Positions 2,731 to 21,543 of a stretch of DNA of 64,000 nt are shown here, piece after piece; position 1 is the first letter of the stretch; each line of letters opens with the position of its first letter. The notes under the pieces were generated by a model that was given only the letters and a program-made list of their open reading frames with translations, was not told where the DNA came from and searched no databases. Origin of the DNA: Pseudomonas lurida (GTDB lineage: Bacteria > Pseudomonadota > Gammaproteobacteria > Pseudomonadales > Pseudomonadaceae); contig NZ_PDJB01000001.1 of assembly GCF_002563895.1 (NCBI RefSeq), positions 1,905,501 through 1,969,500 of the forward strand, written 5' to 3'. The translations under genes were made by a program, and so were the position numbers.

Positions 2731-4095
2731 TCAGAGCCCGGTCAACATCGCATCCGCCGGGGCATCGGCGCGGTCTTGCGCGGTCATCTGGAAGTAGGCG
2801 AACCCCACCACCATGAAGCCCAGGAAGATCAGCCCGATCAGCGCGTTGAACCAGGCCATGGCCACCAGGCACACCACCGCCAGCACCAGCGCAATGCCCG
2901 GGACGATCGGGTAACCCGGTGCGCGGAAGGTGCGTTCCAGCAGCGGTTCGGTCTTACGCAGTTTGAACAGGCTGAGCATGCTCATGATGTACATCACGAT
3001 GGCGCCGAATACGGCCATGGTGATCATCGCGGCGGTCAACGTCATGCCGCCCAGGTTGATCAGGCCGTCGCTGTAGATCGCTGCGATACCGACCACGCCG
3101 CCGGCAATGATTGCTCGGTGAGGTGTCTGAAAACGCGACAGCTTGGCGAGGAAAGACGGCAGGTAGCCGGCGCGTGCCAGGGCGAAGAACTGGCGCGAGT
3201 AGCCGAGGATGATGCCGTGGAAGCTTGCCACCAGGCCGAACAGGCCGATCCACACCAGCATGTGCAACCAGCCGGAGCTGTCGCCTACGACGGTTTTCAT
3301 GGCTTGGGGCAATGGGTCGTTGATGTTCGACAGGGTGCGCCAGTCGCCCACGCCGCCGGCAAAGAACATCACGCCCATGGCCAGGACCACCAGTGTCAGG
3401 ATGCCGCTGATGTAGGCTTTTGGAATGGTGCGCTTCGGATCCTTGGCTTCTTCGGCAGCCATGGCCGCGCCTTCGATGGCGAGGAAGAACCAGATGGCGA
3501 AAGGGATCGCGGCAAACATGCCGGCAATCGCTGGCGCGCCAAATGTATCGGAACCGGCCCAGCCGTTCAGGGCGAAGTTGCTGAAGCTGAAGGCGGGCGC
3601 CACCACGCCCATGAACACCAGCAATTCAGCGACGGCAAGCACACACACCACCAGTTCGAAGGTGGCGGCGAGTTTCACGCCGAGGATATTCAGGCCCATG
3701 AACACGATGTAGGCGCCGACGGCGGCGTGCTTCGGGTCCAGTGCCGGGAACTGCACATTCAGGTAGGCGCCGATGGCCAAGGCGATGGCGGGCGGCGCGA
3801 AGACGAATTCGATCAATGTCGCGAGCCCGGCGATCAAGCCGCCTTTTTCACCAAAGGCGCGACGGCTGTAGGCAAACGGCCCGCCGGCGTGAGGAATTGC
3901 AGTCGTCAGCTCGGTGAAGCTGAAGATGAAGCAGGTGTACATCGCGGCGACCATCAATGAGGTCACCAGGAAGCCGAGGGTTCCGGCGACACCCCAGCCA
4001 TAGCTCCAGCCAAAGTACTCCCCGGATATCACCAGCCCGACCGCAATGCCCCATAAGTGCAGGGTGCCCAAGGTGGGTTTGAGTTGTGTGTTCAT
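2731..4095 (-). CDS. eat: Ethanolamine permease (APC superfamily)
   Basis: A 454-residue inner-membrane transporter with about 12 hydrophobic segments. It starts MNTQLKPTLGTLHLWGIAVGLVISGEYFGWSYGW, the typical opening of proteobacterial ethanolamine permeases; TTAIPHAGGPFAYSRRAFG and EEAKDPKRTIPKAYI are further APC family signatures. It imports ethanolamine, which ethanolamine ammonia-lyase (eutBC, not in this window) would split to acetaldehyde and ammonia. The ATG at 4095 follows CAGGGAGAGCAACACA; an upstream in-frame start at 4131 is rejected because it overlaps the promoter. A sigma-54-type promoter at 4137-4152 suggests nitrogen- or substrate-responsive expression. Confidence 0.85.
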   Translation of the reverse strand: MNTQLKPTLGTLHLWGIAVGLVISGEYFGWSYGWGVAGTLGFLVTSLMVAAMYTCFIFSFTELTTAIPHAGGPFAYSRRAFGEKGGLIAGLATLIEFVFAPPAIALAIGAYLNVQFPALDPKHAAVGAYIVFMGLNILGVKLAATFELVVCVLAVAELLVFMGVVAPAFSFSNFALNGWAGSDTFGAPAIAGMFAAIPFAIWFFLAIEGAAMAAEEAKDPKRTIPKAYISGILTLVVLAMGVMFFAGGVGDWRTLSNINDPLPQAMKTVVGDSSGWLHMLVWIGLFGLVASFHGIILGYSRQFFALARAGYLPSFLAKLSRFQTPHRAIIAGGVVGIAAIYSDGLINLGGMTLTAAMITMAVFGAIVMYIMSMLSLFKLRKTEPLLERTFRAPGYPIVPGIALVLAVVCLVAMAWFNALIGLIFLGFMVVGFAYFQMTAQDRADAPADAMLTGL

Positions 4096-4136
4096 TGTGT
4101 TGCTCTCCCTGAACCGTTTGGAATGATTCAAGGTGT

Positions 4137-4152
4137 TGCAGCGGCCATGCCA
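4137..4152 (-). promoter_or_regulatory. Sigma-54 (RpoN) promoter of the ethanolamine permease
   Basis: On the minus strand the sequence is TGGCATGGCCGCTGCA. Against the RpoN consensus TGGCACG-N4-TTGCW it matches in every defined position except two, with the correct GG/GC spacing. It lies about 40 bp before the ATG at 4095. Ethanolamine catabolism in P. aeruginosa is known to depend on RpoN with the activator EatR, which fits. Three upstream TGTCG copies (4166, 4185, 4224) could be activator contacts. Confidence 0.65.
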
Positions 4153-4264
4153 GCCTGGGAATCATTGTCGTAAAGCCGCGCAACTGTCGCCAGGGGAACG
4201 GTTTGGCGTTTGAATTTTGCCGGTGTCGCACCAGATAAGTGCGGTAGTGCTTGAGCTGCCGCCA

Positions 4265-4345
4265 TCGCGGGCAAGCCCGCTCCCACGGGGGGGCGCGCAC
4301 TTTGTGATCAAGCGCAGTCGAGTGTGGGAGCGGGCTTGCCCGCGA
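4265..4345. repeat. REP palindrome pair (inverted)
   Basis: Two inverted copies of a Pseudomonas REP: TCGCGGGCAAGCCCGCTCCC at 4265 and its complement ending TTGCCCGCGA at 4345, separated by 37 bp. It lies between the divergent permease and kdp promoters. Confidence 0.9.
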
Positions 4346-4396
4346 AGAGGCCCGCGCAGGCGCCGAAAATCCCCTGTAAACCCCGCATAAACCCAC

Positions 4397-4417
4397 TCTT
4401 TACGCCGTCTTTACGCC
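4397..4417 (+). promoter_or_regulatory. Tandem TCTTTACGCC repeat, candidate KdpE operator
   Basis: TCTTTACGCC occurs at 4397-4406 and again at 4408-4417, one helical turn apart, about 90 bp before kdpF. A related TTTACACC follows at 4443. The E. coli KdpE site contains TTTACACCCCGCCC, so these repeats are the best candidate operator for potassium-limited induction. That is inference from resemblance and position. Confidence 0.5.
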
Positions 4418-4506
4418 CTGCCCACAGCCTCGCTCTCGTTCCTTTACACCACTCCTGCCGACAATTGCCCCACACGCGGCACTCGCCGCTAAACGGAGAG
4501 ACTTCC

Positions 4507-4596
4507 ATGAGCGTTCTGGACGGGGTGTCACTGCTATTGGCCGTGGCGCTGTTCATTTATCTGCTGGTTGCGCTGTTACGCGCGGATCGGAACTAG
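4507..4596 (+). CDS. kdpF: KdpF, small subunit of the potassium pump
   Basis: A 29-residue single-span peptide, MSVLDGVSLLLAVALFIYLLV then ALLRADRN. KdpF stabilises the KdpFABC potassium-transporting ATPase in the inner membrane. The ATG at 4507 follows CGGAGAGACTTCC, a good ribosome-binding site. It is the first gene of the operon, 9 bp before kdpA. Length and the single hydrophobic helix match the family (E. coli KdpF is also 29 residues). Confidence 0.92.
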   Translation: MSVLDGVSLLLAVALFIYLLVALLRADRN

Positions 4597-4605
4597 GAGC
4601 GGGCT

Positions 4606-6300
4606 ATGCACAGTTATGACTATTGGCTGATCATTGCCTTCTTTGCCGTGGTGCTGGTGCCGGCACCGTTCCTGGGGCGGTTCTACTACAAGGTGATGGA
4701 AGGGCAGCGCACTTGGCTCACGCCGGTACTCGGCCCTGTCGAACGCGCCTGTTATCGCCTGTCGGGCGTTGACGAGCATCAGGAACAAAGCTGGCAGAAG
4801 TACATGCTGGCGTTGCTTGCGTTCAACCTCGCGGGCTTTTTGCTGTTGTTCGCGATCCTGTTGTTCCAGGACTACCTCCCACTGAACCCGCAGAAATTGC
4901 CGGGCCAGGAATGGACCCTGGCCTTCAACACCGCGGTCAGTTTCATGACCAACACCAACTGGCAGGCCTACAGCGGTGAGGCGTCCCTGAGCTACCTCAG
5001 CCAGATGGCCGGCCTGACCGTGCAGAACTTCGTCAGCGCGGCGACCGGTCTGGCCGTTCTGGTTGCGCTTTGCCGCGGGATCGGTCGCAAGTCCACCCAG
5101 ACACTGGGTAACTTCTGGGTCGATATGACCCGCGCCACCCTCTACGGCCTGCTGCCGTTGTGCCTGGTGCTGGCGTTGTTCCTGGTGTGGCAGGGCGTGC
5201 CGCAAACCTTCGCCCACTACGTGGATGCCGTGACGATGCAGGGCGTGGATCAAGTGATCCCCCTGGGTCCGGCGGCCAGCCAGATTGCGATCAAGCAGTT
5301 GGGCACCAACGGCGGCGGCTTCTTCGGTGTCAACTCGGCGCACCCGTTTGAAGACCCGACTGCCTGGGCCAACCTGTTCGAGTTGGCGTCGATCATCCTG
5401 ATCCCGGTGGCGCTGGTCTTCACCTTCGGCCATTACGTGAAGGACCTGCGTCAGAGCCGCGCGATTCTTGGCTGCATGCTGGCGTTGTTCATCATCGGCG
5501 GCGCGACCTCGCTGTGGGCCGAATACCAGCCTAACCCAACCCTCAACAACCCGGCCGTGGAGCAAACCGCACCACTGGAAGGTAAAGAGGCACGCTTCGG
5601 CACCACCGGCACGGTGCTGTGGTCGGTGACGACGACGGCGGCGTCCAACGGGTCGGTCAACGGCATGCAGGACAGCCTCAACCCTCTCAGCGGCATGGTC
5701 GCGCTGGTCAACATGATGGTCGGCGAAGTGATCTTCGGCGGCGTCGGCGCCGGCATGTACGGCATGTTGCTCAACGTGCTGATCGCGGTGTTCCTCGCCG
5801 GCCTGATGATCGGCCGCACCCCGGAATACCTGGGCAAGAAGCTGCAGGCCAAGGAAGTGCAATTGCTGGTGGTGACCCTCTTGGTGATGCCGGTGGGCGT
5901 GCTGGTGCTCGGCGCCATTGCCGCTAGCCTGCCTGGCCCGGCCGGCGCCATCAGTAACCCTGGCCCGCACGGTTTCAGCCAGTTGCTCTATGCCTACACC
6001 TCGGCCAGCGCCAACAACGGCTCGGCGTTCGGTGGCTTCGGCGCCAACACGCCGTTCCACAACCTGATGCTGGGCCTTGGCATGTTGATCGGCCGCTTCG
6101 GCTACATCCTCCCGGTACTGGCCCTGGCCGGCAGCCTGGCGATGAAGAAGACCGCACCGATTGGCCAGAACAGCTTCCCGACCCATGGCCCGCTGTTCGT
6201 GACCCTGTTGACCGTGACCATTTTGCTGGTGGGCGGCCTGACCTTCCTGCCGACGCTGGCACTGGGCCCTATTGCTGAACACTTGAGCATGGGCTTCTGA
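4606..6300 (+). CDS. kdpA: Potassium-transporting ATPase subunit KdpA
   Basis: The 564-residue channel-like subunit that selects and carries K+ through the membrane. About ten membrane helices are visible, together with the repeated selectivity-filter loops, for example [13 protein letters not shown] (about residue 109), [19 protein letters not shown] (about residue 230), SNGSVNGM and [20 protein letters not shown]. Length matches the family. ATG 4606 follows AGGAGCGGGCT. It lies 5 bp from kdpB in the kdpFABC operon. Confidence 0.98.
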
Positions 6301-6305
6301 GGGAT

Positions 6306-8369
6306 ATGAAAATGAATATGCCTGCAAAAAACGCAGCTCCGGCCAAAACCCAGCAGCCTGCCAAAACCGCCATCTCCGCCCTGTGGCGTCCGGCGCTGGT
6401 CCAGGCTTTCGTCAAGCTGGACCCTCGCCAACTGCAACGCTCGCCGGTGATGCTGGTGGTCGAGTTGACCGCCATCCTCACCACCGTGCTGTGCTTCGTG
6501 CCCGACACCACTGTGCCGACCTATGTCGCCGTGCAGATCGCGGTGTGGCTGTGGTTCACCGTGCTCTTCGCCAACTTCGCCGAAGCCTTGGCCGAAGGGC
6601 GTGGCAAGGCGCGTGCCGACAGCCTCAAGGCCGGTAGCGAAGGCCTGAGCGCACGCCGCAAGGAGGCGGATGGCAGCTTCAAGGTCGTGCCGGCCACCAG
6701 CCTGCGCAAAGGCGATGTGGTGCGCGTTGCCGCCGGGGAAATGATCCCCGGTGACGGCGAAGTCATTGAAGGCATCGCGGCGGTTAACGAAGCCGCGATC
6801 ACCGGTGAATCCGCACCCGTCATCCGCGAGTCCGGCGGCGACCGTTCGGCCGTCACCGGTAACACTCGCCTGGTGTCGGACTGGCTGCTGATCCGCATCA
6901 CCGCCAACCCCGGTGAGTCGACACTCGACCGCATGATCGCCCTGGTGGAAGGCGCCAAGCGCCAGAAAACCCCCAACGAAGTCGCGCTGGATATCCTGCT
7001 GATCGGCCTGACCCTGATCTTCCTGCTGGTGGTGGTGACCCTGCAACCGTTCGCCCACTTCGCCAGTGGCAGCTTGCCGCTGGTGTTCCTGGTCGCACTG
7101 TTGGTGACCCTGATTCCTACCACCATCGGCGGCTTGTTGTCGGCTATCGGTATCGCCGGCATGGACCGCCTGGTGCGCCTCAATGTGATCGCCAAGTCCG
7201 GCCGTGCCGTGGAAGCGGCGGGGGACGTGCATGTGTTGCTGCTGGACAAGACCGGCACCATCACCTTCGGTAACCGTCGGTGCGCGGCAGTGGTCGCAGC
7301 GCCTGGCGTCAGCGGCAAGGAAGTCGCCGAAGGGGCGTTGTTTGCCTCGCTGGCGGATGACACGGCGGAAGGTAAATCCATCGTCGAATACCTGCGCGCC
7401 TTGCACCCTCAAGCCGAGCCGACCGCAGACGAGTTGACGGCCGTGCCATTCAGCGCTGAAACGCGTCTGTCCGGTGTCGACTACCAGGGCCGCGTATTTC
7501 GCAAAGGCGCAGTGGATTCGTTGCTGGCCTTCGTCGGTCAACAACGTCGCGATCTTGCAGCGCCTCTGTCGCGGGAAATCGACAAGATCGCCCAAAGCGG
7601 TGGCACCCCGTTGCTGGTGTGTGCCGATGGCAAGTTGCTTGGTGCGATCCACCTGAAGGACGTGGTCAAGCCGGGCATCCGCGAGCGTTTTGCCGAGCTG
7701 CGTAAGCTGGGCATCCGCACCGTGATGGTCACCGGCGACAACCCGCTGACCGCTGCCGCGATTGCTGCCGAAGCGGGCGTGGACGACGTACTGGCCGAAG
7801 CCACCCCGGAGAAGAAACTCGCCCGCATTCGTCATGAGCAGAACGACGGACGTCTGGTGGCGATGTGCGGCGACGGTGCCAACGACGCCCCGGCGCTGGC
7901 CCAGGCGGACGTCGGCATGGCCATGAATGACGGCACCCAGGCCGCTCGCGAAGCCGCCAACATGGTCGACCTCGACAGCGACCCGACCAAGTTGCTGGAC
8001 GTGGTGCAGATCGGCAAGGAGTTGCTGGTGACCCGTGGCGCGCTGACCACCTTCTCCATCGCCAACGACGTGGCCAAGTACTTCGCGATCCTGCCGGCAC
8101 TGTTCGCCTCGATCTACCCGCAACTGGGCGTGCTCAACGTGATGCACTTGCAGAGCCCGCAGAGCGCGATCCTCTCGGCCATCGTGTTCAACGCGCTGAT
8201 CATCGTGGTGCTGATTCCCCTGGCGCTGCGCGGTGTGCGCGTGCAGGCGGCGAGTGCGGCGGCATTGCTGCGACGCAACCTGCTGATCTACGGGCTGGGC
8301 GGGATCCTGGTGCCGTTCGTGGGCATCAAGGCGATCGACATGCTGTTGACGGCGTTGCACCTGGTGTAA
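6306..8369 (+). CDS. kdpB: Potassium-transporting P-type ATPase subunit KdpB
   Basis: The 687-residue catalytic subunit, a P1A-type ATPase. The actuator motif is [13 protein letters not shown]...ITGESAPV (about residues 145-178). The phosphorylation motif DKTGTI has Asp at residue 314. Nucleotide-binding and hinge motifs [10 protein letters not shown] and [18 protein letters not shown] are present. The phosphorylation site lies in the large cytosolic loop between membrane helices. The N-terminal 30 residues are Ala/Pro/Lys-rich and variable in this family. It works with KdpA, KdpC and KdpF for high-affinity K+ uptake. Confidence 0.98.
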
Positions 8370-8383
8370 AGACCTCCACCTTG

Positions 8384-8413
8384 TGTGGCGGGGGGGCGCG
8401 CTCCCTCGCCACA
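8384..8413. repeat. Short REP-like palindrome between kdpB and kdpC
   Basis: TGTGGCG at 8384-8390 pairs with CGCCACA at 8407-8413 around a G-rich, C-rich centre. It resembles the second common Pseudomonas REP type (TGTGGCGAGGGGGC). It fills the 74-bp gap inside the kdp operon and could tune RNA stability between the two subunits. Confidence 0.65.
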
Positions 8414-8443
8414 GGGGTTTCTTGACTGATTGAGGATGTGAAG

Positions 8444-8989
8444 ATGACTAACATGATCCGCCCGGCCCTGAGCCTGCTGGTCCTCATGACCCTGATCACC
8501 GGCGTCGCTTACCCGCTGGTGGTGACCGGCGTCGCCCAAGTGGCTTTCCCGGACCAGGCCAATGGCAGCCTGGTGCGTGACGACAGCGGCAAAGTGCGCG
8601 GCTCCAGCCTGATCGCCCAGGACTTTACCGGCGACAGCTGGTTCCACCCGCGCCCATCGGCCGGCGCGTTTGCCACGGTTTCCAGCAGCGCCAGTAACCT
8701 GGGCCCAAGCAACCCGGCACTGGCGACGCGTATCTTCGATGACGCCAACAAGCAACTGGTGCCTAGCCAAGGGCCGGTGCCTTTGGCGTCGCTGACTACC
8801 TCTGGCAGCGGTCTTGATCCACACTTGCCTCCAGAGGCAATTGCCTATCAACTGGCGCGAGTGGCCACGGCGCGGAATGTGCCGGTGGCAACCTTGCAAC
8901 GGTTGCTGGATGAACACATCGAGAGCCCGTTGGTGGGCCCGCCTGTCGTGAATGTGCTGGCCTTGAACATGGCCTTGGAAAAATTGTAA
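8444..8989 (+). CDS. kdpC: Potassium-transporting ATPase subunit KdpC
   Basis: A 181-residue subunit with one N-terminal membrane helix ([20 protein letters not shown]) and a periplasmic domain carrying KdpC signatures: [29 protein letters not shown], and [14 protein letters not shown] followed by [12 protein letters not shown]. KdpC helps assemble the complex and raises nucleotide affinity of KdpB. TGAGGATGTG precedes the start; GTG 8438 and ATG 8453 are alternatives in frame. The gene is 74 bp from kdpB because of a REP-like insertion. Confidence 0.96.
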
Positions 8990-9003
8990 GCAGTGAAAGC
9001 GCT

Positions 9004-9066
9004 TCGCGGGCAAGCCCGCTCCCACAGGGGAATGCATCCCAGATGTGGGAGCGGGCTTGCCCGCGA
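9004..9066. repeat. REP palindrome pair
   Basis: TCGCGGGCAAGCCCGCTCCC (from 9004) and its inverted copy ending at 9066, with a 17-bp spacer, lie between kdpC and kdpD. The pair separates the pump genes from the sensor genes. Confidence 0.9.
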
Positions 9067-9113
9067 TGACGGCCTGAAGTACACCCGATAAACACCTGAA
9101 GGAACCCCCGCGC

Positions 9114-11765
9114 ATGAGCGACTCCGGCCGCGCCGACGCCCTGTTAGCCGATCTGCCCCGGGACGGCCGTGGCCGGCTCAAAGTTTTCCTCGGCGCCGCG
9201 CCCGGCGTGGGCAAGACCTACGCCATGCTCCAGGCTGCGCATACCCAGTTGCGCCAGGGCGTACGGCTGATCGCCGGCGTGGTCGAAACCCACGGCCGCG
9301 CCGAGACCGAAGCCTTGCTCAGCGGCCTGCCGCAACAGCCCCTGCTGCGCAGCGAATACCGCGGCGTGATGCTCGAAGAGATGGACCTTGACGGCCTGCT
9401 CTCCGCCAAGCCCAAGCTGGTGTTGGTGGACGAACTGGCCCATAGCAACGCCCCCGGCAGCCGCCATGAAAAGCGCTGGCAAGACATCCAGGAACTGCTC
9501 GCCGCTGGCATCAACGTGTTTACCACGGTCAACGTCCAGCACCTGGAGAGCCTCAACGACCAGGTGCGCGGCATCACCGGGGTGCAAGTGCGTGAAACGC
9601 TGCCGGACTGGGTGCTGCAGGAGGCCGACGAACTGCTGCTGATCGACCTGCCCTCCCGCGAGTTGCTGGAGCGCCTGCGCGACGGCAAGGTCTACGTGCC
9701 GGAGCAGGCGCGCGCGGCCATCGATGCGTTTTTTACCCAGACCAACCTCATGGCCCTGCGCGAGTTGGCGATGCAAACCGCCGCCGCCCATGTCGATGAC
9801 GATTTGGCCCAGGGGTATCGCCAACTGGGCCAGGCTGCCCCCGCCGTGCGTGGGCGCTTGCTGGTGGGGGTGGACGGTGATGCGCAGGCCGAGCGCCTGG
9901 TGCGCCATGCCAGCCGGGTAGCCCAGCGCCGGCATTTGCCCTGGAGCCTGGTGCATGTCGATAACGGCCGAGCGCGGGATGAACAGTCGCGGCTACGCCT
10001 GCAGAATGCCCAGCAACTGGCGGAGCGCCTGGGCGGTGAGGTCGTATTGCTGCGGGCGGGGGAGGTGGCGAAGACGCTGATCCAGCATGCCGCCGAACGC
10101 CGTGCCAGCCTGTTGCTGGTGGGGCAGTCGCGAATGCGCTGGCGGCGTCGCTTATTTGGAGGCGGCCTGGCCGCACGCTTGCTGCGAAACGCGCGGGGTC
10201 TGGAAATCAACGTCCTCGACAGCGACGACATCCCCGCACCGCCACGCTTGCCGGATGTGCGCGGGCTGGTGTGGTTCGACTATGCACTTGCGGTCCTGGC
10301 AACGGTGGTTGCGGCGGCAGTGGCGTGGGCGGTGTCCAGCGTCTTGCCGCTGCCGAACATCTCGCTGGTATTCCTGGCTGCGGTATTGCTGGTGGCGGTG
10401 CGCAGCAGCCTGGGGCCGTCGCTGGTGTGTGCGGCGTTGTCGTTCATGACCTACGACTTCCTGTTCATTCCGCCGAATTTTTCCTTTGCCATCCAGCGCG
10501 AAGAAGACGTGCTGACCCTGTTGTTCTTCCTGTTGATGGCGGCGCTGACCGGCAACCTGGCCGCGCGTCAACGCCGCCAGTTGCAGGCATTGCGCGATAC
10601 TCAGGAAGAAACCAGTGAACTGCTCGACCTGTCCCGCAAACTCACCGCCGCCACCGACCGCCAGGCGGTGATCAGCGCTGCGGCGCATCACCTGCAAGGC
10701 TGGAGCGACCTGGACTTGTGCCTGGTCAATCGCGATGGCCAGGGCGGTTGGGCGATCGAGACGGGCGGCCCGCTGACCCTCACCGAAGCCGAGCGCGCCG
10801 CCGCCGATTGGGCCTGGCAGCATGACCAGCCGGCGGGTATGGGCACCGGCACGTTGCCGTTCGGGCGCTGGTGGTGGTGGCCGTTGTCGGGCGAAGAGGG
10901 GCCCTTGGGGTTGCTGGGGGTGAGTCCCAAACCCGGCCTGGAGCTGAGTGGCCAACGCCGCCGTTTGCTCACCGCCTTGAGCCAGCCGCTGGCCCAGGCA
11001 TTGGCGAGGGCGCAACTGGCTCAAGAGCTGGAGTCCGCTCGGCTGCACGGCGAAACCGAGCAACTGCGCAGTGCGTTGCTGGCTTCAGTGTCCCACGATT
11101 TGCGCACGCCGCTGACCTCCATGCGCGGCAGCATCGACAGCCTGCTGGCGCTCGGTGAGGCGATCCCGCTGGAGGATCGCCGTGAGTTGCTCGAAGGCAC
11201 CCGCGATGAGGCCGAGCGTCTCGACCGCTATATCCAGAATCTGCTGGACATGACGCGCCTCGGTCACGGCGCCTTGAAACTGGCACGGGACTGGGTGTCG
11301 CCGGGCGACATCGTCGGCAGCGCCCTGGGCCGCCTGCGTGCGGTGCTGGCGCCGTTGCAGGTGAATACCGATGTGCCGCCGGAGCTGCCGTTGTTGTACG
11401 TGCACGCCGCGTTGATCGAACAAGCGCTGGTCAATGTGCTGGAAAACGCCGCGCGGTTTTCGCCGCCACAAGGCCGCCTGCAACTGAGTGCCGGAGTCTT
11501 GGATGACCAGCTGTTTTTCGCCGTGGCAGATGAGGGCCCCGGCATTCCCGAAGACGAGCGCGCAAAGATCTTCGACATGTTCTACACCGCCGCCCGTGGC
11601 GATCGGGGCGGGCAGGGCACGGGCCTCGGGTTGGCTATCTGCCAGGGCATGGTGGGCGCCCATGGTGGGCATATCAGCGTGGCCGACGGTATCGACGGGC
11701 GTGGCACTTGCATCACCTTGTTCCTCCCTTTACCCACACAGCCTGGCCTGGAGCGCGAGGCATGA
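9114..11765 (+). CDS. kdpD: Sensor histidine kinase KdpD
   Basis: An 883-residue membrane sensor. It has an N-terminal KdpD domain with Walker A GAAPGVGKTYAML (about residues 28-40), a universal-stress-like domain (about 245-375), four membrane helices (about 390-490), a GAF-like region, a HisKA box SHDLRTPLTSMRG with phospho-accepting His at residue 661, and a HATPase domain (NVLENAARFSPP, DEGPGIPEDE, GTGLGLAI). It phosphorylates KdpE in response to low K+ or turgor. ATG 9114 follows AAGGAACCCCCGCGC. REP elements separate it from kdpC, so it may be transcribed partly on its own. Confidence 0.97.
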   Translation: MSDSGRADALLADLPRDGRGRLKVFLGAAPGVGKTYAMLQAAHTQLRQGVRLIAGVVETHGRAETEALLSGLPQQPLLRSEYRGVMLEEMDLDGLLSAKPKLVLVDELAHSNAPGSRHEKRWQDIQELLAAGINVFTTVNVQHLESLNDQVRGITGVQVRETLPDWVLQEADELLLIDLPSRELLERLRDGKVYVPEQARAAIDAFFTQTNLMALRELAMQTAAAHVDDDLAQGYRQLGQAAPAVRGRLLVGVDGDAQAERLVRHASRVAQRRHLPWSLVHVDNGRARDEQSRLRLQNAQQLAERLGGEVVLLRAGEVAKTLIQHAAERRASLLLVGQSRMRWRRRLFGGGLAARLLRNARGLEINVLDSDDIPAPPRLPDVRGLVWFDYALAVLATVVAAAVAWAVSSVLPLPNISLVFLAAVLLVAVRSSLGPSLVCAALSFMTYDFLFIPPNFSFAIQREEDVLTLLFFLLMAALTGNLAARQRRQLQALRDTQEETSELLDLSRKLTAATDRQAVISAAAHHLQGWSDLDLCLVNRDGQGGWAIETGGPLTLTEAERAAADWAWQHDQPAGMGTGTLPFGRWWWWPLSGEEGPLGLLGVSPKPGLELSGQRRRLLTALSQPLAQALARAQLAQELESARLHGETEQLRSALLASVSHDLRTPLTSMRGSIDSLLALGEAIPLEDRRELLEGTRDEAERLDRYIQNLLDMTRLGHGALKLARDWVSPGDIVGSALGRLRAVLAPLQVNTDVPPELPLLYVHAALIEQALVNVLENAARFSPPQGRLQLSAGVLDDQLFFAVADEGPGIPEDERAKIFDMFYTAARGDRGGQGTGLGLAICQGMVGAHGGHISVADGIDGRGTCITLFLPLPTQPGLEREA

Positions 11766-11802
11766 GCTACCCTGTTTTCTTCACGGATTTTGATTGGATA
11801 CC

Positions 11803-12492
11803 ATGAGCCAGACCGCGACGATTTTGGTCATTGACGACGAACCGCAGATCCGCAAATTCCTGCGCATCAGCCTGGCCTCCCAGGGCTATAAAGTGATAGA
11901 GGCCGGCACCGGCAACGAAGGCCTGGCCCAGGCCGCGCTGAGCAAGCCGGACTTGCTGGTGCTCGACCTTGGCCTGCCGGACATGGACGGTCAGCAGGTG
12001 CTGCGCGAGTTCCGCGAATGGTCGACGGTGCCGGTGCTGGTGCTGTCGGTGCGGGCCAGCGAGGTACAGAAAGTCGAAGCCCTCGACAATGGCGCCAATG
12101 ACTATGTGACCAAGCCCTTTGGTATCCAGGAGTTTCTCGCCCGGGTGCGCGCGTTGCTGCGCCAGGCGCCGGCGGGTGAGTCCCAGGAAGCGGCCCTGCG
12201 CTTTGGCCCCTTGACCGTGGACCTGGCCTATCGCCGGGTGCTGCTGGACGGTGCTGAAGTGGCGCTGACCCGCAAGGAGTACGCGGTGTTGGCGCAACTG
12301 GCGCGGCATCCGGGGCGGGTGATCACTCAGCAACAACTGCTCAAGGATATCTGGGGCCCGACCCATACCGAGGACAGCCATTACCTGCGTATTGTGGTGG
12401 GGCACCTGCGTCAGAAGCTGGCGGATGACCCGACCCAGCCACGGTTTATCGTGACTGAGGCAGGGGTGGGGTATCGGTTGTTAGGCGGGTAG
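11803..12492 (+). CDS. kdpE: Response regulator KdpE
   Basis: A 229-residue OmpR-family regulator. The receiver domain carries acidic residues in IDDEPQIRK, phospho-acceptor Asp at about residue 55 (LLVLDLGLPDMDG) and Lys in VTKPFG. A winged-helix output domain (about 130-229) shows LTRKEYAVLAQLARHPGRVI and the SHYLRIVVGHLRQKL recognition segment. It activates kdpFABC. ATG 11803 is chosen over TTG 11794, as it directly opens the MSQTATILVIDDE family start. The gene follows kdpD by 37 bp. Confidence 0.97.
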   Translation: MSQTATILVIDDEPQIRKFLRISLASQGYKVIEAGTGNEGLAQAALSKPDLLVLDLGLPDMDGQQVLREFREWSTVPVLVLSVRASEVQKVEALDNGANDYVTKPFGIQEFLARVRALLRQAPAGESQEAALRFGPLTVDLAYRRVLLDGAEVALTRKEYAVLAQLARHPGRVITQQQLLKDIWGPTHTEDSHYLRIVVGHLRQKLADDPTQPRFIVTEAGVGYRLLGG

Positions 12493-16351: not shown

Positions 16352-16756
16352 CTAGCCACAAGCTGAATCTTGGTCGTTGATGTATACGGCTGGACCGCAG
16401 AGAGAAATATATTTGGCTTTTAATTCGATTACCGAAGACTTGGACGTTGCTTGCAACTCAAAATAGTTTTCGTGCTTAGTTATCACCATTTTTAACGTTT
16501 CTTTAGTCGGGATATTTTTGATTTTGACGTCGCTCAAGCCTCCGCAATCCAAGCCGATTCTGCATGTGTTAAACCCCTCTTTGATCCACTTTTCCGGAGG
16601 GGCGTCAGGTGTTTCAGAAATGTCAAAACCTAAACCTATATTGGGGCGGTCGTTGTCAATGGTCACGGAAAAAAGCGTTATTTCGCCTATCTCTACTGGG
16701 TAAGTGAATACCTTGTTGAAAAAAATAGTGTTTTCTAATTCGTTCCAATATTTCAT
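16352..16756 (-). CDS. Predicted immunity protein to the Rhs toxin (Imm50-like)
   Basis: A 134-residue soluble, acidic, beta-rich protein. Its placement defines it: the ATG at 16754-16756 overlaps the TGA of the Rhs toxin gene as ATGA, the usual layout of polymorphic toxin immunity genes. The pattern W...L (start), PPEKWIKEGFNTCRIGLDCGGLSDVKIKNI and LKMVITKH resembles the Imm50 immunity family, but I cannot confirm the family without a profile search. The gene is visibly A+T-rich, unlike neighbouring core genes, consistent with horizontal exchange of toxin tip plus immunity gene. Confidence 0.7.
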   Translation of the reverse strand: MKYWNELENTIFFNKVFTYPVEIGEITLFSVTIDNDRPNIGLGFDISETPDAPPEKWIKEGFNTCRIGLDCGGLSDVKIKNIPTKETLKMVITKHENYFELQATSKSSVIELKAKYISLCGPAVYINDQDSACG

Positions 16757-19700
16757 TTTTTATCCTTGAAATAATAATGGTCTTTCGCGCCATCTAATTT
16801 TCCATTTCTCGGCCTGAATTTCGGTCGAAGATTGAAATGCGCTGCTTGATCACCCTTTCCGTCAGGTGTTGAAAATTTGTGACCAGCCCCATGATCCTGA
16901 ATGAGAACCTTGGAGCCGTCCATCCGCGTGAATTCATACTCTCGAGTCATCACTGGCTTTCCTTGCGCATCTAGAATTTCGTTTCTCTGCTGATCTCTCA
17001 TCGATACAAGTGAGTATTGCCTCATTGTTCCTAATCTAGGATCAACTACGGCATCGGGGTGTTGTACACGCGGTATTCCCGCATCGGCCTTCGCCTGTTT
17101 GAAAGCTCCATTCCTTGATACTTCCGGCGCGGAAGGTTCCGTAGGTTTGCCACATTCTGGCCTTTTCGTACCTTTGGGTGGGCAGTGGGCATTCAACCCG
17201 AGTGGATCAATCCATCCTGTCGGATTAGGCACGTACAGGTACGCATTGATCCCACCCGCCAACTTCACCGGGTCCGGCGTCAGGTAGCGACCAACATCCG
17301 GATTGTAGTAGCGATGGCGGTTGTAGTGCAGCCCGCTTTCTTGATCGAAATATTGGCCCTGGAAGCGCAGGGGGTTGTCGACTTTTCCTATGTCGAGACG
17401 GCTGATTTCGCCGTAAGCACGGTAATGCGCAGACCAGACGATCTCGCCATCCGGAGCGGTGAGTTCCTGTGGGGTGCCGAGGTGGTCGAGTTGGTAGTGG
17501 TAGGCCTTGGTTTCCTTTGGGCCGAAGCCTTCCAGCAGGACCAGCGGGCGGAAGGTGTTGGGTTCGTAGAGGTAGCTGCGGTGGCGGTTCGCGTGGTGTT
17601 CGGCGATGAGTGTGTCGCCTTGCCAGAAGAACTCGGTCGTAATGCCATCGACGGTTTTGCTGATTCGCCGCCCAAACGGGTCGTAGCGGTAGCTGGCGGT
17701 TTGGCCGTTGGGCGTCTTAATGCCAATCAGGCGATGCTGGCAGTCGTAGCGGTATTCGGTGACGAGGGTGTGGCCTTTGCCGCGTCGCTCACGGATCAGG
17801 TTGCCGTAGGCGTCGTAGTCGTAATGGTGGTCACCCTGGATCATCAGGCGATTGCCGGCGACGATATCGGGGCCGGGGCGGTTTTGCATGAGCAGGTTGC
17901 CGGCCGGGTCATGGCCGAAGCGTTCTTGCTCGTCTTGGGTGTGGTCGGCGCGGGTGAGGCGGCTGAGTGGGTCGTAGTGGTAGCGGTGTTCGCCTTTGCG
18001 GGTGTCGAGCAGGCGGGTGAGGTTGCTGGATTTGTCGTAGTCGTAATGACGGCGGTATAGCGGGCCTTCGGTGTCGTTGATGCTCTGGCTGAACAGGCGT
18101 CCCTGGTGGTCGTGTTGGTAGTGGCTGAGCAGTTGACCTTGTTGGCGTTGCTGTTCGCGACCGGCAGTAAAGAGGTGCGAGGTGAGTACTGCGCCGTTCA
18201 GTTCGACGGTGGCGAGGTGACCGCCTTTGTCGTGGTTGAAGGTGAGGCGGTTGTTGTCCGGCAGGCGCAGGTCATGAAGGTGGCCGCAAGCGTCGTAGCC
18301 GTAGCGCAGGGTGCCCCAGCCTTGGTGTTCGGCGGTGAGGCGATTTTGGACGTCGTATTCATAGACCAAAGCCCAGTGGCCGTCGTCGACGCTTAGGAGA
18401 TTGCCTTGGCGGTCGTAGGCGTAATCAACCTTGTTACCGTCGGGCAGGGTTTTTCTTACGAGTCGACTGGCATGGTCGCGCTCATAGCGAGTAACCAGCC
18501 GACTGCCGTCATCACCGTGTTCAGTCTTTTCCTGCAGGTTGCCGTTGAGGTCGTAGACGTAAGCCGTACGCTGGCCGTCAAACCCGGTTTCCTGCTGGAT
18601 CAGGCCATTAGGGTGGTAAGCGAGTTTGTAGGTCTCGCCGACTTCATTCTCGATCTCGGTCAGCAGCAGCCGAACGTTGTCGTAGCGGTACTTGACCTGG
18701 CTTCCATCGGCGTTGATGCGGCGGCTGATCAGGTGCAGGCCGTCGGCGTATTCGTAGCGGGTGACGTTCCCCAGTTCATCGCGTTCGGAAGTGATTTTTC
18801 CGTAAGCGTTGTAGCTGTATTCCCTGCACGCGCCGCCCGGTAGCACCACGCGGATCAACCGACCCACGCTGTCCCATTGATACTGGGTCAGCGCACCATG
18901 CTCATCCTCACGCGCAACTTGTCGTCCGAGATCGTCATAGCGATAACGCTTGATTCCACCATTGGGCAACTGCTCCTCAAGCAACTGCCCACGTTCATTC
19001 CACACCAGTCGCTGACAGCTATGGTCTGGATACCAAACCCCAACCAGCTGCCCGTATTTGTTGTAGCTGTAGTCAGTAGCGTTGCCGTCAGGATCGGTCC
19101 TACGCGTGACATCGCCCTGGTCATTCCGCTCGTATTTCCAGACTGCTTCACCACGCCGCACAACCCGTACGAACCCGTTGTCATGCTCGTAGGTCGTCGG
19201 CTCGTCATCTCCCGGAAACAACGCCACCAGGTGCCCGGCTTCGTCGTATTGATACGCCGTGATCGCACCGAGAGGATCCTGCTCAACCGTCAGCCGGCCT
19301 TTGTCATCGTAGGACTTGAAGTGCTCAGCCCCCTCCGGATCCACCCGCTGCACCAGCCGCGCCCGCTGGTCATGCACGTAGACTTCCTGGCTGCCGTCGG
19401 CGTTAAACACCGTGACCTGCCCGTTGTCATCCCAGGCATACCGCGTGTCCATCTGCGAGAAACTCGCCCAATGCCGGACACACCGCGCGGCCTTGCCAGC
19501 CCGTTCCCACTCCCAATAGAAACTCGCCCCACCGGCCAATCCACGCTCAAGAATCACGTGCTGAGCGTCGTACCGATAAACCTCGCTTTCACCGACCGCA
19601 TTGGTTGCCGAAATCAGTCGCCCAGCGTCGTCATAGGCGTAGGAAACGACGGTATGCTCCGTCACCCATTCAAAAGGCTCAAGGTCTTTGGCCCGATGAA

Positions 19701-21471
19701 TCTGGTAGTCCACCGCCACAATCCGGCCCGAGGCATAGCGCAAAAACAGCGAACGCCCCACGCCGTTATCCAGCCGCTCAATGCGCCCCAGAACATCCCG
19801 GCAAACGCGCAACCGGTTGTCATACGCATCGCTGATCGCCGTCAGCACACCGTCGCGAAAGTGGTAAAAACGTGACGACTGAGCCAGCACCAGTTCATCA
19901 GGCACAGTCCCCAAGTAGACCGCTGCTTCGGCCAGGCTATTGGTGATTGCAGGCCGAGAAACGGTGGGCAAGGGCAGGGTGGTCGAGCGGTTTTCATGGT
20001 CGGTCCACACCACCGAGTCGCCGGAAACACTCAGCCGATGCGCCAGCGAGTGACTCCAGCCAAACCCCAACCCGCAATCCACTTCCACTGCACTGGTGCG
20101 GTACAAGCGTGTCCACTCAAACGGCAGAATCCCGTCCAGGGCCCCATCGGTGAGGGTCAGCAGTTCCTCGCCCGTGACCATCGACACCGGGCAACCGTTT
20201 GTGGCGGTTTTGTCCGACGACGCAGCGGCATCCCCATTGGGGTTTCGAGCAGCTGCCGGCACGTCATCCACAGGCTCCTGGCGCACCAACACCGTCCGTT
20301 GCGTGGCCTTGTCCCGAACCAACGGCACCGGGTTGGAAACCACCTGATCCCCAACCTTCAAAGGCACATCTGGAATCACCCGGATCGGTATCGCCGCGCT
20401 GCCCAGCAACAACGGCTTGGCCGCTTCGACATGCGCTTCCAAGCGGGGCCCGACGAGCTGATCGGCCAGCATCTCCAGCCATCCACGCACGCGGCCGGAT
20501 TTGATATGCCCCATCACTTGCACACCCAGACGAACGCGAACTCCCATGCCCCGCGTCGCCCAGATCAGAAACAGATTGATCAGCACCTCGCCGGTAATCT
20601 CGCCCAGCAATTCGTACATCTGCGGCGGTGGCAGCATGCGTATCCAGGCGACCATGGCCGACAGATAGATAAACAACAGCGGCTCATCGCTCAACACGAG
20701 CAGGCCATGGGCAATGGCGTCCTTGCCCAGTGTCAGCAGTTCGTCGAGTTCTGCCTGGGAGACGTACTGCAACAACTTCTGGCTATTGGTCTTGATATCC
20801 GCCAAGAGCTCGTACAGCTGGGCGAAGTTGTCCCAAAGGTTGTAGAGCGCCTTGGAAACGCCGGTTGAGAACGCCACGCCTTGCATCGCGCTGCGCTCGA
20901 AGGGTGTGGCGTTGGCGAAGTCATTCCATTGCGGCGTGAAGGTCTTCTTCCATTCATCACGCAGGCGGACTTCCAGATCAGCGATTACCGACTGATAAGA
21001 CGCATACAGCGTTTTGATGTGATCCTTGGATACGTTGGGGTAGAAGGTGATCTGGTAGCGCTGATCACGGGTGCAGTCGTTGACTACAAGAATGCCGGTG
21101 GGGCCAATGATTCGATGGAGTGGCTCATTTATCGGACTGTCATCCGCAGCAATGGCTTGCAGCACCACCGGCGTATTGCCGATAGGCACGAACCGGGTGC
21201 TCTCGAACATATGCACCAGGGTCAACGAGCCCTGGGCCTTGCAGGTGGCAACCGTGCGGTTGGGTTTTTTGGACGAAGCGGGAGCAACGAGGGAAACGTC
21301 CTCTCCGACCTTGAACACCTGCTCCACTTCCAGTGCCGAAACGCTCCAGAAGCGTTCGGCCCACTCGTCAAAGGTGTTCAGGCAATTTCGGAAGTCACGG
21401 AAAACGCTGTTGACGTCCGGCCTCTGGCCATCCAAGGGCGACAGGACTAACTTGGCGATAACCGGAATCAT
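16753..21471 (-). CDS. Rhs-repeat polymorphic toxin with C-terminal HNH nuclease tip
   Basis: A 1572-residue protein. Residues 1-400 are a distinct N-terminal region with a hydrophobic pair (about 255-310). Then comes a DUF6531-like Rhs entry (GCPVSMVTGEELL, GILPFEWTRLYRT), many YD repeats (YRYD, YSYN, YAYD types), and the core end GLHYNRHRYYNPDVGRYLTPD closing with PTGWIDPLGLN, the Asp-protease self-cleavage motif (DPLGL at 17194-17208). The tip after it, about 146 residues, contains IQDHGAGHKF, AAHFNLRPKF and KDHYYF, the HNH/Endonuclease VII HHH-type nuclease toxin pattern. No PAAR, VgrG or Eag gene is present nearby. ATG 21471 follows AAGGGGTGCGTCTC; GTG 21480 is an alternative. Confidence 0.92.
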   Translation of the reverse strand: MIPVIAKLVLSPLDGQRPDVNSVFRDFRNCLNTFDEWAERFWSVSALEVEQVFKVGEDVSLVAPASSKKPNRTVATCKAQGSLTLVHMFESTRFVPIGNTPVVLQAIAADDSPINEPLHRIIGPTGILVVNDCTRDQRYQITFYPNVSKDHIKTLYASYQSVIADLEVRLRDEWKKTFTPQWNDFANATPFERSAMQGVAFSTGVSKALYNLWDNFAQLYELLADIKTNSQKLLQYVSQAELDELLTLGKDAIAHGLLVLSDEPLLFIYLSAMVAWIRMLPPPQMYELLGEITGEVLINLFLIWATRGMGVRVRLGVQVMGHIKSGRVRGWLEMLADQLVGPRLEAHVEAAKPLLLGSAAIPIRVIPDVPLKVGDQVVSNPVPLVRDKATQRTVLVRQEPVDDVPAAARNPNGDAAASSDKTATNGCPVSMVTGEELLTLTDGALDGILPFEWTRLYRTSAVEVDCGLGFGWSHSLAHRLSVSGDSVVWTDHENRSTTLPLPTVSRPAITNSLAEAAVYLGTVPDELVLAQSSRFYHFRDGVLTAISDAYDNRLRVCRDVLGRIERLDNGVGRSLFLRYASGRIVAVDYQIHRAKDLEPFEWVTEHTVVSYAYDDAGRLISATNAVGESEVYRYDAQHVILERGLAGGASFYWEWERAGKAARCVRHWASFSQMDTRYAWDDNGQVTVFNADGSQEVYVHDQRARLVQRVDPEGAEHFKSYDDKGRLTVEQDPLGAITAYQYDEAGHLVALFPGDDEPTTYEHDNGFVRVVRRGEAVWKYERNDQGDVTRRTDPDGNATDYSYNKYGQLVGVWYPDHSCQRLVWNERGQLLEEQLPNGGIKRYRYDDLGRQVAREDEHGALTQYQWDSVGRLIRVVLPGGACREYSYNAYGKITSERDELGNVTRYEYADGLHLISRRINADGSQVKYRYDNVRLLLTEIENEVGETYKLAYHPNGLIQQETGFDGQRTAYVYDLNGNLQEKTEHGDDGSRLVTRYERDHASRLVRKTLPDGNKVDYAYDRQGNLLSVDDGHWALVYEYDVQNRLTAEHQGWGTLRYGYDACGHLHDLRLPDNNRLTFNHDKGGHLATVELNGAVLTSHLFTAGREQQRQQGQLLSHYQHDHQGRLFSQSINDTEGPLYRRHYDYDKSSNLTRLLDTRKGEHRYHYDPLSRLTRADHTQDEQERFGHDPAGNLLMQNRPGPDIVAGNRLMIQGDHHYDYDAYGNLIRERRGKGHTLVTEYRYDCQHRLIGIKTPNGQTASYRYDPFGRRISKTVDGITTEFFWQGDTLIAEHHANRHRSYLYEPNTFRPLVLLEGFGPKETKAYHYQLDHLGTPQELTAPDGEIVWSAHYRAYGEISRLDIGKVDNPLRFQGQYFDQESGLHYNRHRYYNPDVGRYLTPDPVKLAGGINAYLYVPNPTGWIDPLGLNAHCPPKGTKRPECGKPTEPSAPEVSRNGAFKQAKADAGIPRVQHPDAVVDPRLGTMRQYSLVSMRDQQRNEILDAQGKPVMTREYEFTRMDGSKVLIQDHGAGHKFSTPDGKGDQAAHFNLRPKFRPRNGKLDGAKDHYYFKDKK

Positions 21472-21543
21472 GAGACGCACCCCTTGAGTGGGGCACGGAT
21501 AGAGAAGTACATCGGCGGTCCCTCGCGCTGATTGGTCAGGCGA

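What the first reader, a model, noticed from the sequence alone, without database searches (positions are those of the whole stretch)
16352..21471. Rhs toxin with HNH nuclease tip and overlapping immunity gene, no delivery genes in sight
The Rhs core ends with a DPLGL cleavage motif, followed by a 146-residue tip with an HNH/Endonuclease VII HHH-type pattern and an ATGA-overlapping A+T-rich partner gene. The first 400 residues contain neither a PAAR nor an obvious type VI or ABC-toxin targeting domain, and no vgrG, hcp or eag gene is within 5 kb. How this toxin leaves the cell is therefore open, and the N-terminal region with its hydrophobic pair could be an unusual export or chaperone-binding module.
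Basis: partly seen in the sequence, partly recalled or inferred. Interest (0 to 1): 0.75.

Follow-up and report, generated by a model that had tools for sequence, protein, structure and literature searches.

The report
Orphan Rhs DNase toxin, distant loader
A Pseudomonas carries a caged, probably DNA-cutting toxin and its antidote far from the injection machine's genes; relatives suggest that such toxins are fired by the type VI secretion system, so its loader is probably a matching pair of genes that sits elsewhere in the same chromosome with no toxin of its own.

Summary
A 1572-residue Rhs protein (16753-21471, minus strand) ends in a 146-residue nuclease tip (Pfam Tox-HNH-EHHH, not HHH) and overlaps an Imm50 immunity gene. 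It has no PAAR match, and no vgrG, adaptor, eag or tssC was found in the window. The export question has a likely answer. Deeper branches of the N-terminal family sit directly behind vgrG and a DUF4123 adaptor gene: 16 of 60 relatives' loci examined, and a Photobacterium T6SS cluster. A characterised Rhs toxin with the same tip family, Aeromonas TseI, needs such a VgrG and adaptor (PMC7170923). The window's genome has four Rhs genes of this family, all detached, and one vgrG-adaptor pair without cargo, 1.4 Mb away. Among 199 Pseudomonas genomes this adaptor type (E below 1e-20) occurs in 90 of 91 with the N-terminal domain and 0 of 108 without (not corrected for kinship). A tree suggests that operon linkage came first, with two detachments. 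So this is a known kind of T6SS cargo in an unusual layout: probably one bare loader serving several scattered Rhs toxins in trans. Binding is not shown.

The parts
16753..21471 (-). rhs gene, 1572 aa (ATG start; GTG at 21480 possible)
20191..21471 (-). N-terminal domain, residues 1-427; family found behind vgrG-DUF4123 in distant relatives
21019..21330 (-). predicted beta-sandwich in the N-terminal domain, about residues 48-151 (FN3-like arrangement, weak matches)
20548..20703 (-). moderately hydrophobic helical region, residues 257-308, with D262, P281 and P282 invariant in the 78 rows of A2
20167..20190 (-). PVSMVTGE, residues 428-435: predicted N-terminal self-cleavage motif (x/PVxxxxGE of the literature)
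   Evidence: motif from PMC11461821
17194..20190 (-). Rhs/YD-repeat cage, residues 428-1426 (DUF6531, RHS repeats, Rhs core)
17194..17208 (-). DPLGL, residues 1422-1426: predicted C-terminal self-cleavage site
   Evidence: mechanism from PMC11461821 and PMC7170923
16756..17193 (-). toxin tip, residues 1427-1572; PF15657 Tox-HNH-EHHH; H1527, H1531, H1545 and H1565 invariant in 9 tips aligned
16352..16756 (-). immunity gene, 134 aa, PF15594 Imm50, ATGA overlap with rhs

Best explanation
This is an antibacterial type VI secretion cargo effector with its immunity protein. Steps: (1) the Rhs repeats fold into a closed cage around the toxic tip, and the protein cuts itself at C427/P428 and after DPLGL (inferred from motifs; shown by others for other Rhs effectors). 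(2) The N-terminal domain, held to the cage, docks on a VgrG spike with the help of a DUF4123 adaptor (inferred from operon linkage in relatives and from TseI). (3) In this genome the adaptor and spike are not next door: the best candidates are the cargo-less vgrG-DUF4123 pair at genome position about 0.539-0.542 Mb, 1.4 Mb from the window, which would act in trans on this and three further detached Rhs toxins (inferred; about 0.65 on its own). (4) A T6SS fires the spike; the tip cuts DNA in the neighbour (inferred from PF15657; DNase activity shown by others for TseI). (5) Imm50 protects the producer and its kin (inferred from family and gene overlap). T6SS cargo as such: about 0.9.
For: Tip and partner families. 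In 60 relatives' loci, 8 of 8 with a tip match of 150 bits or more also have an Imm50 match downstream; in 80 named loci, 4 of 5 with a tip match over 100 bits do, the fifth (L179) lying on a 7.6-kb contig. Cage matches solved T6SS Rhs cages (7q97, 8h8a, 8qja, 8uy4; E 1.9e-80 or better). In 16 of 60 relatives' loci a DUF4123 match ends within 75 bases of the N-terminal match and a vgrG match ends about 700-740 bases before it (two of these vgrG are cut by a contig end); all 16 have N-termini of 28.7-38.5% local identity. Photobacterium toruni: tss genes, PAAR, hcp, vgrG, DUF4123, rhs in a row. Own genome: DUF4123 at two places only, one near a Lipase_3 protein, one without cargo; the one Eag gene and the one PAAR match go with another Rhs. 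The cargo-less pair lies between putP and rlmJ-msrA; this site was found in 21 of 21 loci examined, and in 4 of 21 an Rhs of the wider family sits between tap and rlmJ. N-terminal domain and this adaptor type co-occur: 90 of 91 against 0 of 108 (phi 0.99); control adaptor phi 0.57; TssC phi 0.24. Tree: 60 detached and 19 operonic rows need 2 changes. Experimental precedent TseI.
Against: No binding, secretion or killing was tested. Co-occurrence is not corrected for kinship, and where rhs and adaptor share an operon linkage alone causes it. Nine genomes with weak adaptor matches (E 5e-7 to 8e-4), all without the N-terminal domain, were set aside by the 1e-20 limit; counted in, the contrast is 90 of 91 against 9 of 108. 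G032 has a weak N-terminal match (1.6e-8) without the adaptor. G087 and G151 have domain and adaptor but no TssC match. At the site orthologous to the cargo-less pair, the Rhs seen in 4 of 21 loci belongs to the L013 branch, not to the window's branch; the window branch's nearest operonic relatives (L059, L060) lie at other vgrG-tap loci, and that join has support 91, not starred. In TseI the adaptor binds the Rhs core, not the N-terminus, so the N-terminal correlation may reflect VgrG binding instead. The N-terminal models are of low confidence (mean pLDDT 64).
Confidence: 0.72

Rival explanations
1. T6SS cargo, but loaded without a special adaptor: the N-terminal domain binds one of the other VgrGs directly, as proposed for Tse15 of Acinetobacter, which has no known chaperone.
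For: Tse15 has an N-terminal clade domain that appears to bind VgrG15, and no chaperone gene has been identified at its locus (PMC11461821). The window's Rhs has no adaptor beside it.
Against: Near-complete co-occurrence with one adaptor type (with the limits given above) and adaptor linkage in deeper branches. The PDB profile search gave no Tse15 match for the N-terminus, the cleavage motif differs, and the model is partly beta.
Confidence: 0.2
2. A stranded, undelivered Rhs: an expired cargo gene kept as a reservoir of tips and immunity, no longer secreted.
For: No loader gene beside it; small extra genes that look like displaced toxin-immunity cassettes lie downstream of its paralogues.
Against: Open frames of full length in this gene and its three paralogues. 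Fifteen N-terminal positions are invariant in 78 aligned rows, most of them detached. A tip has been exchanged on a nearly identical chassis.
Confidence: 0.08
3. Export by a route other than T6SS, such as a Tc-type toxin complex or an unknown system using the hydrophobic helices.
For: The cage is also distantly like Tc proteins. The hydrophobic pair is conserved in part (31 of 42 rows reach 1.6 in the second segment, 15 of 42 in the first). G087 and G151 carry the domain without a TssC match.
Against: Only a sub-threshold TcdB match. Linkage of relatives to vgrG-DUF4123. 89 of 91 genomes with the domain have TssC, against 90 of 108 without it.
Confidence: 0.03

Closest known systems
TseI/TsiI with VgrG1 and TecI (Aeromonas dhakensis; PMC7170923, abstract and passages read)
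   Same: Rhs cage, N-terminus described as of unknown function before that study, same tip family (pfam15657), immunity start overlapping the toxin stop; a DUF4123 adaptor gene linked to relatives of our N-terminal family
   Different: TseI lies in an hcp-vgrG-tecI-tseI-tsiI operon; here rhs-imm is alone and the loader candidate is 1.4 Mb away. Whether our N-terminus is homologous to VIRN was not testable here
Tse15 with VgrG15 (Acinetobacter baumannii; PMC11461821, abstract, Results parts 1-2 of 4 and Discussion part 1 of 2 read)
   Same: N-terminal delivery domain before a self-cleaving Rhs cage; no PAAR domain mentioned for it in the parts read
   Different: Its clade domain is a bundle of 12 helices with another cleavage motif; ours is predicted beta-sandwich plus helices with PVxxxxGE; no adaptor is known for Tse15
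PAAR/Eag-type Rhs (here the own-genome Rhs at 6.156 Mb)
   Same: Rhs cage with C-terminal tip
   Different: PAAR motif and an Eag (DcrB) gene beside it; no N-terminal similarity to the window protein
Orphan vgrG5a-tap5a of Pseudomonas ogarae F113 (PMC10671463, section 3.1 and passages read)
   Same: Orphan vgrG plus DUF4123 pair without a classical toxin gene behind it
   Different: Located at speA, and its authors propose a MATE protein (Tfe8) as cargo, with mutant data on killing; its genes were not compared with ours here

Membership tests
TseI-type DUF4123-dependent Rhs effector | Rhs cage with C-terminal DPxGL site | tested here: met
TseI-type DUF4123-dependent Rhs effector | N-terminal cleavage motif PVxxxxGE | tested here: met
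   PVSMVTGE at residues 428-435; motif only, cleavage not shown
TseI-type DUF4123-dependent Rhs effector | Tox-HNH-EHHH tip with overlapping immunity gene | tested here: met
TseI-type DUF4123-dependent Rhs effector | vgrG and DUF4123 gene directly upstream | tested here: not met
   none in the window; met in 16 of 60 relatives' loci and in Photobacterium toruni. So 'works like TseI' is claimed, operon membership is not
TseI-type DUF4123-dependent Rhs effector | N-terminus homologous to VIRN and binding VgrG | not testable with these tools
   TseI sequence not at hand; no binding assay
Tse15-type clade domain Rhs | cleavage motif (S/N)Ix4G(T/A)Ex3HxD | tested here: not met
   sequence reads PVSMVTGEELLTLTDG
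Tse15-type clade domain Rhs | 12-helix clade fold | tested here: inconclusive
   no Tse15 hit by profile nor among the Foldseek rows shown; models of pLDDT 64, partly beta
PAAR/Eag-type Rhs effector | PAAR domain in the N-terminus | tested here: not met
   no PAAR match; the only PAAR_motif match in the genome is at 6.157 Mb
PAAR/Eag-type Rhs effector | adjacent Eag (DcrB) gene | tested here: not met
   the only DcrB match in the genome is at 6.156 Mb
Imm50 immunity proteins | match over the Pfam cut-off next to a polymorphic toxin | tested here: met
   65.3 bits, cut-off 27.1; Imm50 match downstream in 8 of 8 loci with a tip match of 150 bits or more
Imm50 immunity proteins | neutralises the adjacent toxin | not testable with these tools
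   needs co-expression

The most novel reading that the evidence does not exclude
One conserved cargo-less vgrG-DUF4123 pair (the putP-rlmJ site) is the common loader for a whole fleet of detached, tip-swapping Rhs toxins scattered over the chromosome (four in this genome; five listed places in genome G165 with one adaptor match), so adaptor specificity is for a shared chassis rather than for one neighbouring effector. By extension, other 'empty' orphan vgrG-tap pairs in the P. fluorescens group may have distant Rhs cargo.
Probability: 0.6. Interest if true: 0.62.

Novelty: new variant of a known kind. Interest (0 to 1): 0.45.

Why it matters
T6SS effectors are often sought beside vgrG, hcp, eag or adaptor genes (as in PMC7970981, passages read). 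If one bare loader serves many distant Rhs toxins, such searches miss much of this arsenal and may assign the wrong cargo to orphan vgrG-tap pairs. It also predicts that any intact chassis, whatever its tip, can be used without bringing its own loader, which would help to explain how tips spread. Both are testable with single gene removals in a soil Pseudomonas.

Tried and rejected

Wider spread: a search of 369 genomes of the class with the alignment found only the own genome, yet Photobacterium, Vibrio and Shewanella proteins turned up in the protein search, so the class search was not sensitive or its sample too thin.

Promoters and terminators: counts like shuffles. Kinship-corrected co-occurrence and mirror-tree tests were not run. 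One search missed the adaptor in 3 of 21 loci because of its ORF filter; one search repeated it with tblastn and found it in 21 of 21. Selection: of the places listed I fetched 60, first the distant ones, then mostly long contigs; of the adaptor places I fetched 20, partly chosen by chromosomal position like the own one, so 21 of 21 for the site is not an unbiased rate. 78 rows went into the second alignment and the tree; L065, L066, L121 and several close relatives were left out; the Photobacterium row was added to the tree only. The genome lists and E-values were retyped into scripts.

Papers: searches listed no paper whose title, abstract start or passages seen report a detached Rhs fleet served by a cargo-less vgrG-tap pair. 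Of eight papers I saw abstracts, passages or named sections, of none the whole text.

Full report
What is there. The end of the toxin and the start of the partner share ATGA. Pfam finds DUF6531, RHS repeats and the RHS core, then PF15657 Tox-HNH-EHHH at the tip; the partner is Imm50. NCBIfam finds the Rhs-associated core, ending before the tip. The cage matches solved T6SS Rhs cages, 7q97 best (E 1.7e-123), with 8uy4 (Tse15) and 8cp6 (Tse5) also listed. DPLGL ends 146 residues before the stop, and PVSMVTGE at 428-435 fits the x/PVxxxxGE cleavage motif of the literature (PMC11461821 Discussion part 1). Nine tips aligned keep H1527, H1531, H1545 and H1565. Of 60 relatives' loci, 8 have a tip match of 150 bits or more and all 8 have an Imm50 match downstream; of 80 named loci, 4 of 5 with a tip match over 100 bits do. 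GC falls from 0.55-0.64 over most of the gene to 0.43-0.48 over tip and immunity gene. A Pseudomonas lurida protein is 95-99% identical up to residue 1426 and 19% after it, with another tip family (PF15540): a tip exchange on the same chassis.

The genome. The window is 1905501-1969500 of a single 6.31-Mb contig. Its N-terminal domain recurs in three more Rhs genes, at 3.560 Mb (71% identity), 3.503 Mb (63%) and 2.618 Mb (30%, partial); none has a vgrG or adaptor relative in its 19-kb stretch. T6SS inventory by profile: strong vgrG-family matches at 0.539, 2.248 and 6.154 Mb, with two weaker ones (43 and 25 bits) that may be of other origin; Hcp at 6.147 and 3.442 Mb; DUF4123 at 0.541 and 2.250 Mb; Eag/DcrB at 6.156 Mb; PAAR at 6.157 Mb, in an Rhs protein next to that Eag gene. 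TssC is at 6.145 Mb and, 38% identical, at about 3.44 Mb within what looks like a second cluster (the other genes there were named by eye). The 2.25-Mb adaptor is followed, one gene on, by a Lipase_3 protein. The 0.54-Mb pair is followed by rlmJ and msrA (named by eye), with no Rhs match and no toxin that I could see. So there is one adaptor without evident cargo and four Rhs toxins without an adjacent loader.

Relatives. In 199 Pseudomonas genomes the N-terminal domain is in 91. I fetched 60 of the listed places. In 16 of 60 a DUF4123 match ends within 75 bases of the N-terminal match and a vgrG match ends 697-739 bases before it (two of these vgrG run off a contig end); in 44 of 60 neither was found, with 8.9 kb or more upstream in 43 of them and 2.8 kb in L066. 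All 16 have N-termini 28.7-38.5% identical to the window's; the detached ones are either 45-82% identical (40 loci) or belong to a 28-31% branch with the own 2.618-Mb paralogue (4 loci). Eighty named loci, all 59% or closer, have no vgrG, adaptor or Eag match in what was fetched; 72 of 80 have 6 kb upstream, the other 8 less, L188 almost none. A Photobacterium toruni plasmid has tssBCEFG, then PAAR, hcp, vgrG, DUF4123 and rhs in a row (N-terminus 26% identical over residues 45-281, E 9e-17); Vibrio and Shewanella relatives exist. On a tree of 79 rows (quick method, rooted on the long Photobacterium branch), 60 detached and 19 operonic rows need two changes. The window's clade (56 rows, support 100) joins two operonic rows (support 91), and the other detached clade (4 rows) joins three operonic ones (support 99). 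I infer that linkage is the older state.

The candidate loader. The 0.54-Mb adaptor type (E below 1e-20) is in 90 of 91 genomes with the N-terminal domain and 0 of 108 without. Nine further genomes have weak matches (5e-7 to 8e-4), none with the N-terminal domain; counted in, it is 90 of 91 against 9 of 108. The exception, G032, has a weak N-terminal match (1.6e-8). The other adaptor of the genome, as control at the same limit, is in 55 of 91 and 8 of 108; TssC in 89 of 91 and 90 of 108. The Fisher value (5e-57) takes no account of kinship and should not be read as a probability. All of putP, vgrG, tap, rlmJ and msrA were matched in 21 of 21 loci that I chose partly by position; 17 of 21 have no Rhs match there, 4 of 21 carry an Rhs of the 2.618-Mb branch, one of these split into two frames. 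In one locus (L111) the vgrG match is partial, in another (L113) vgrG and tap lie 2.4 kb apart. Genome G049 has one strong adaptor match, beside such an Rhs, and also a detached Rhs of the window's branch; G165 has five listed places of the N-terminal domain and one adaptor match. These ratios are what a shared loader would give.

Mechanism. TseI of Aeromonas dhakensis is the experimental precedent: an Rhs protein with a pfam15657 DNase tip, an overlapping immunity gene, self-cleavage at both ends, an N-terminus that binds VgrG1, a core that binds the DUF4123 protein TecI, and secretion that needs both (PMC7170923, abstract and passages). I infer the same route here, with spike and adaptor supplied from a distance. 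Shown here: families, motifs, gene positions, linkage in relatives, co-occurrence, tree. Inferred: cleavage, docking, trans loading, firing, DNase action, protection.

The N-terminal domain itself. Two models agree on short helices, an eight-stranded sandwich (50-143, block pLDDT about 71-91 in the second model) and a helical part (149-355, block pLDDT 46-85), with a poorly predicted linker. The helices at 263-278 and 294-308 are moderately hydrophobic; D262, P281 and P282 nearby are invariant in 78 rows. Whether they cross a membrane is open.

Verdict. The toxin is an ordinary member of a known kind in all but its genomic layout. The layout, a cargo-less loader and a detached fleet, is the part worth testing.

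Noticed in passing
L011 15003-15840, L012 15152-16172, L013 3791-6089: Downstream of the three paralogous Rhs-immunity pairs lie extra small genes and tip-like fragments, some beginning in Rhs core sequence: probably displaced toxin-immunity cassettes. None was seen behind the window's pair.
   Followed up: no
P0001 (Pseudomonas lurida protein): 95-99% identical to the window Rhs up to residue 1426, then a different tip (PF15540): a recent tip exchange.
   Followed up: partly
[quoted passage not shown]
   Followed up: no
L121 about 4063-7976: At the putP-rlmJ site of G046 the Rhs behind vgrG-tap is split into two frames.
   Followed up: no
L015 7019-8995 and L016 6987-9005, C-terminal ends: Both VgrGs that precede DUF4123 genes in the own genome end in a cysteine-rich tail (CxxCxxCRxGxC).
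   Followed up: no
PMC10671463, P. ogarae F113 vgrG5a-tap5a: The proposed cargo is a MATE protein whose orthologues the paper finds in all analysed strains, also those without vgrG5a-tap5a; a distant Rhs cargo would be worth checking. Not tested here.
   Followed up: no
window 4606-12492 +: Looks like a kdpABCDE potassium-transport operon (named by eye; translations seen from 6306 on; no family search).
   Followed up: no
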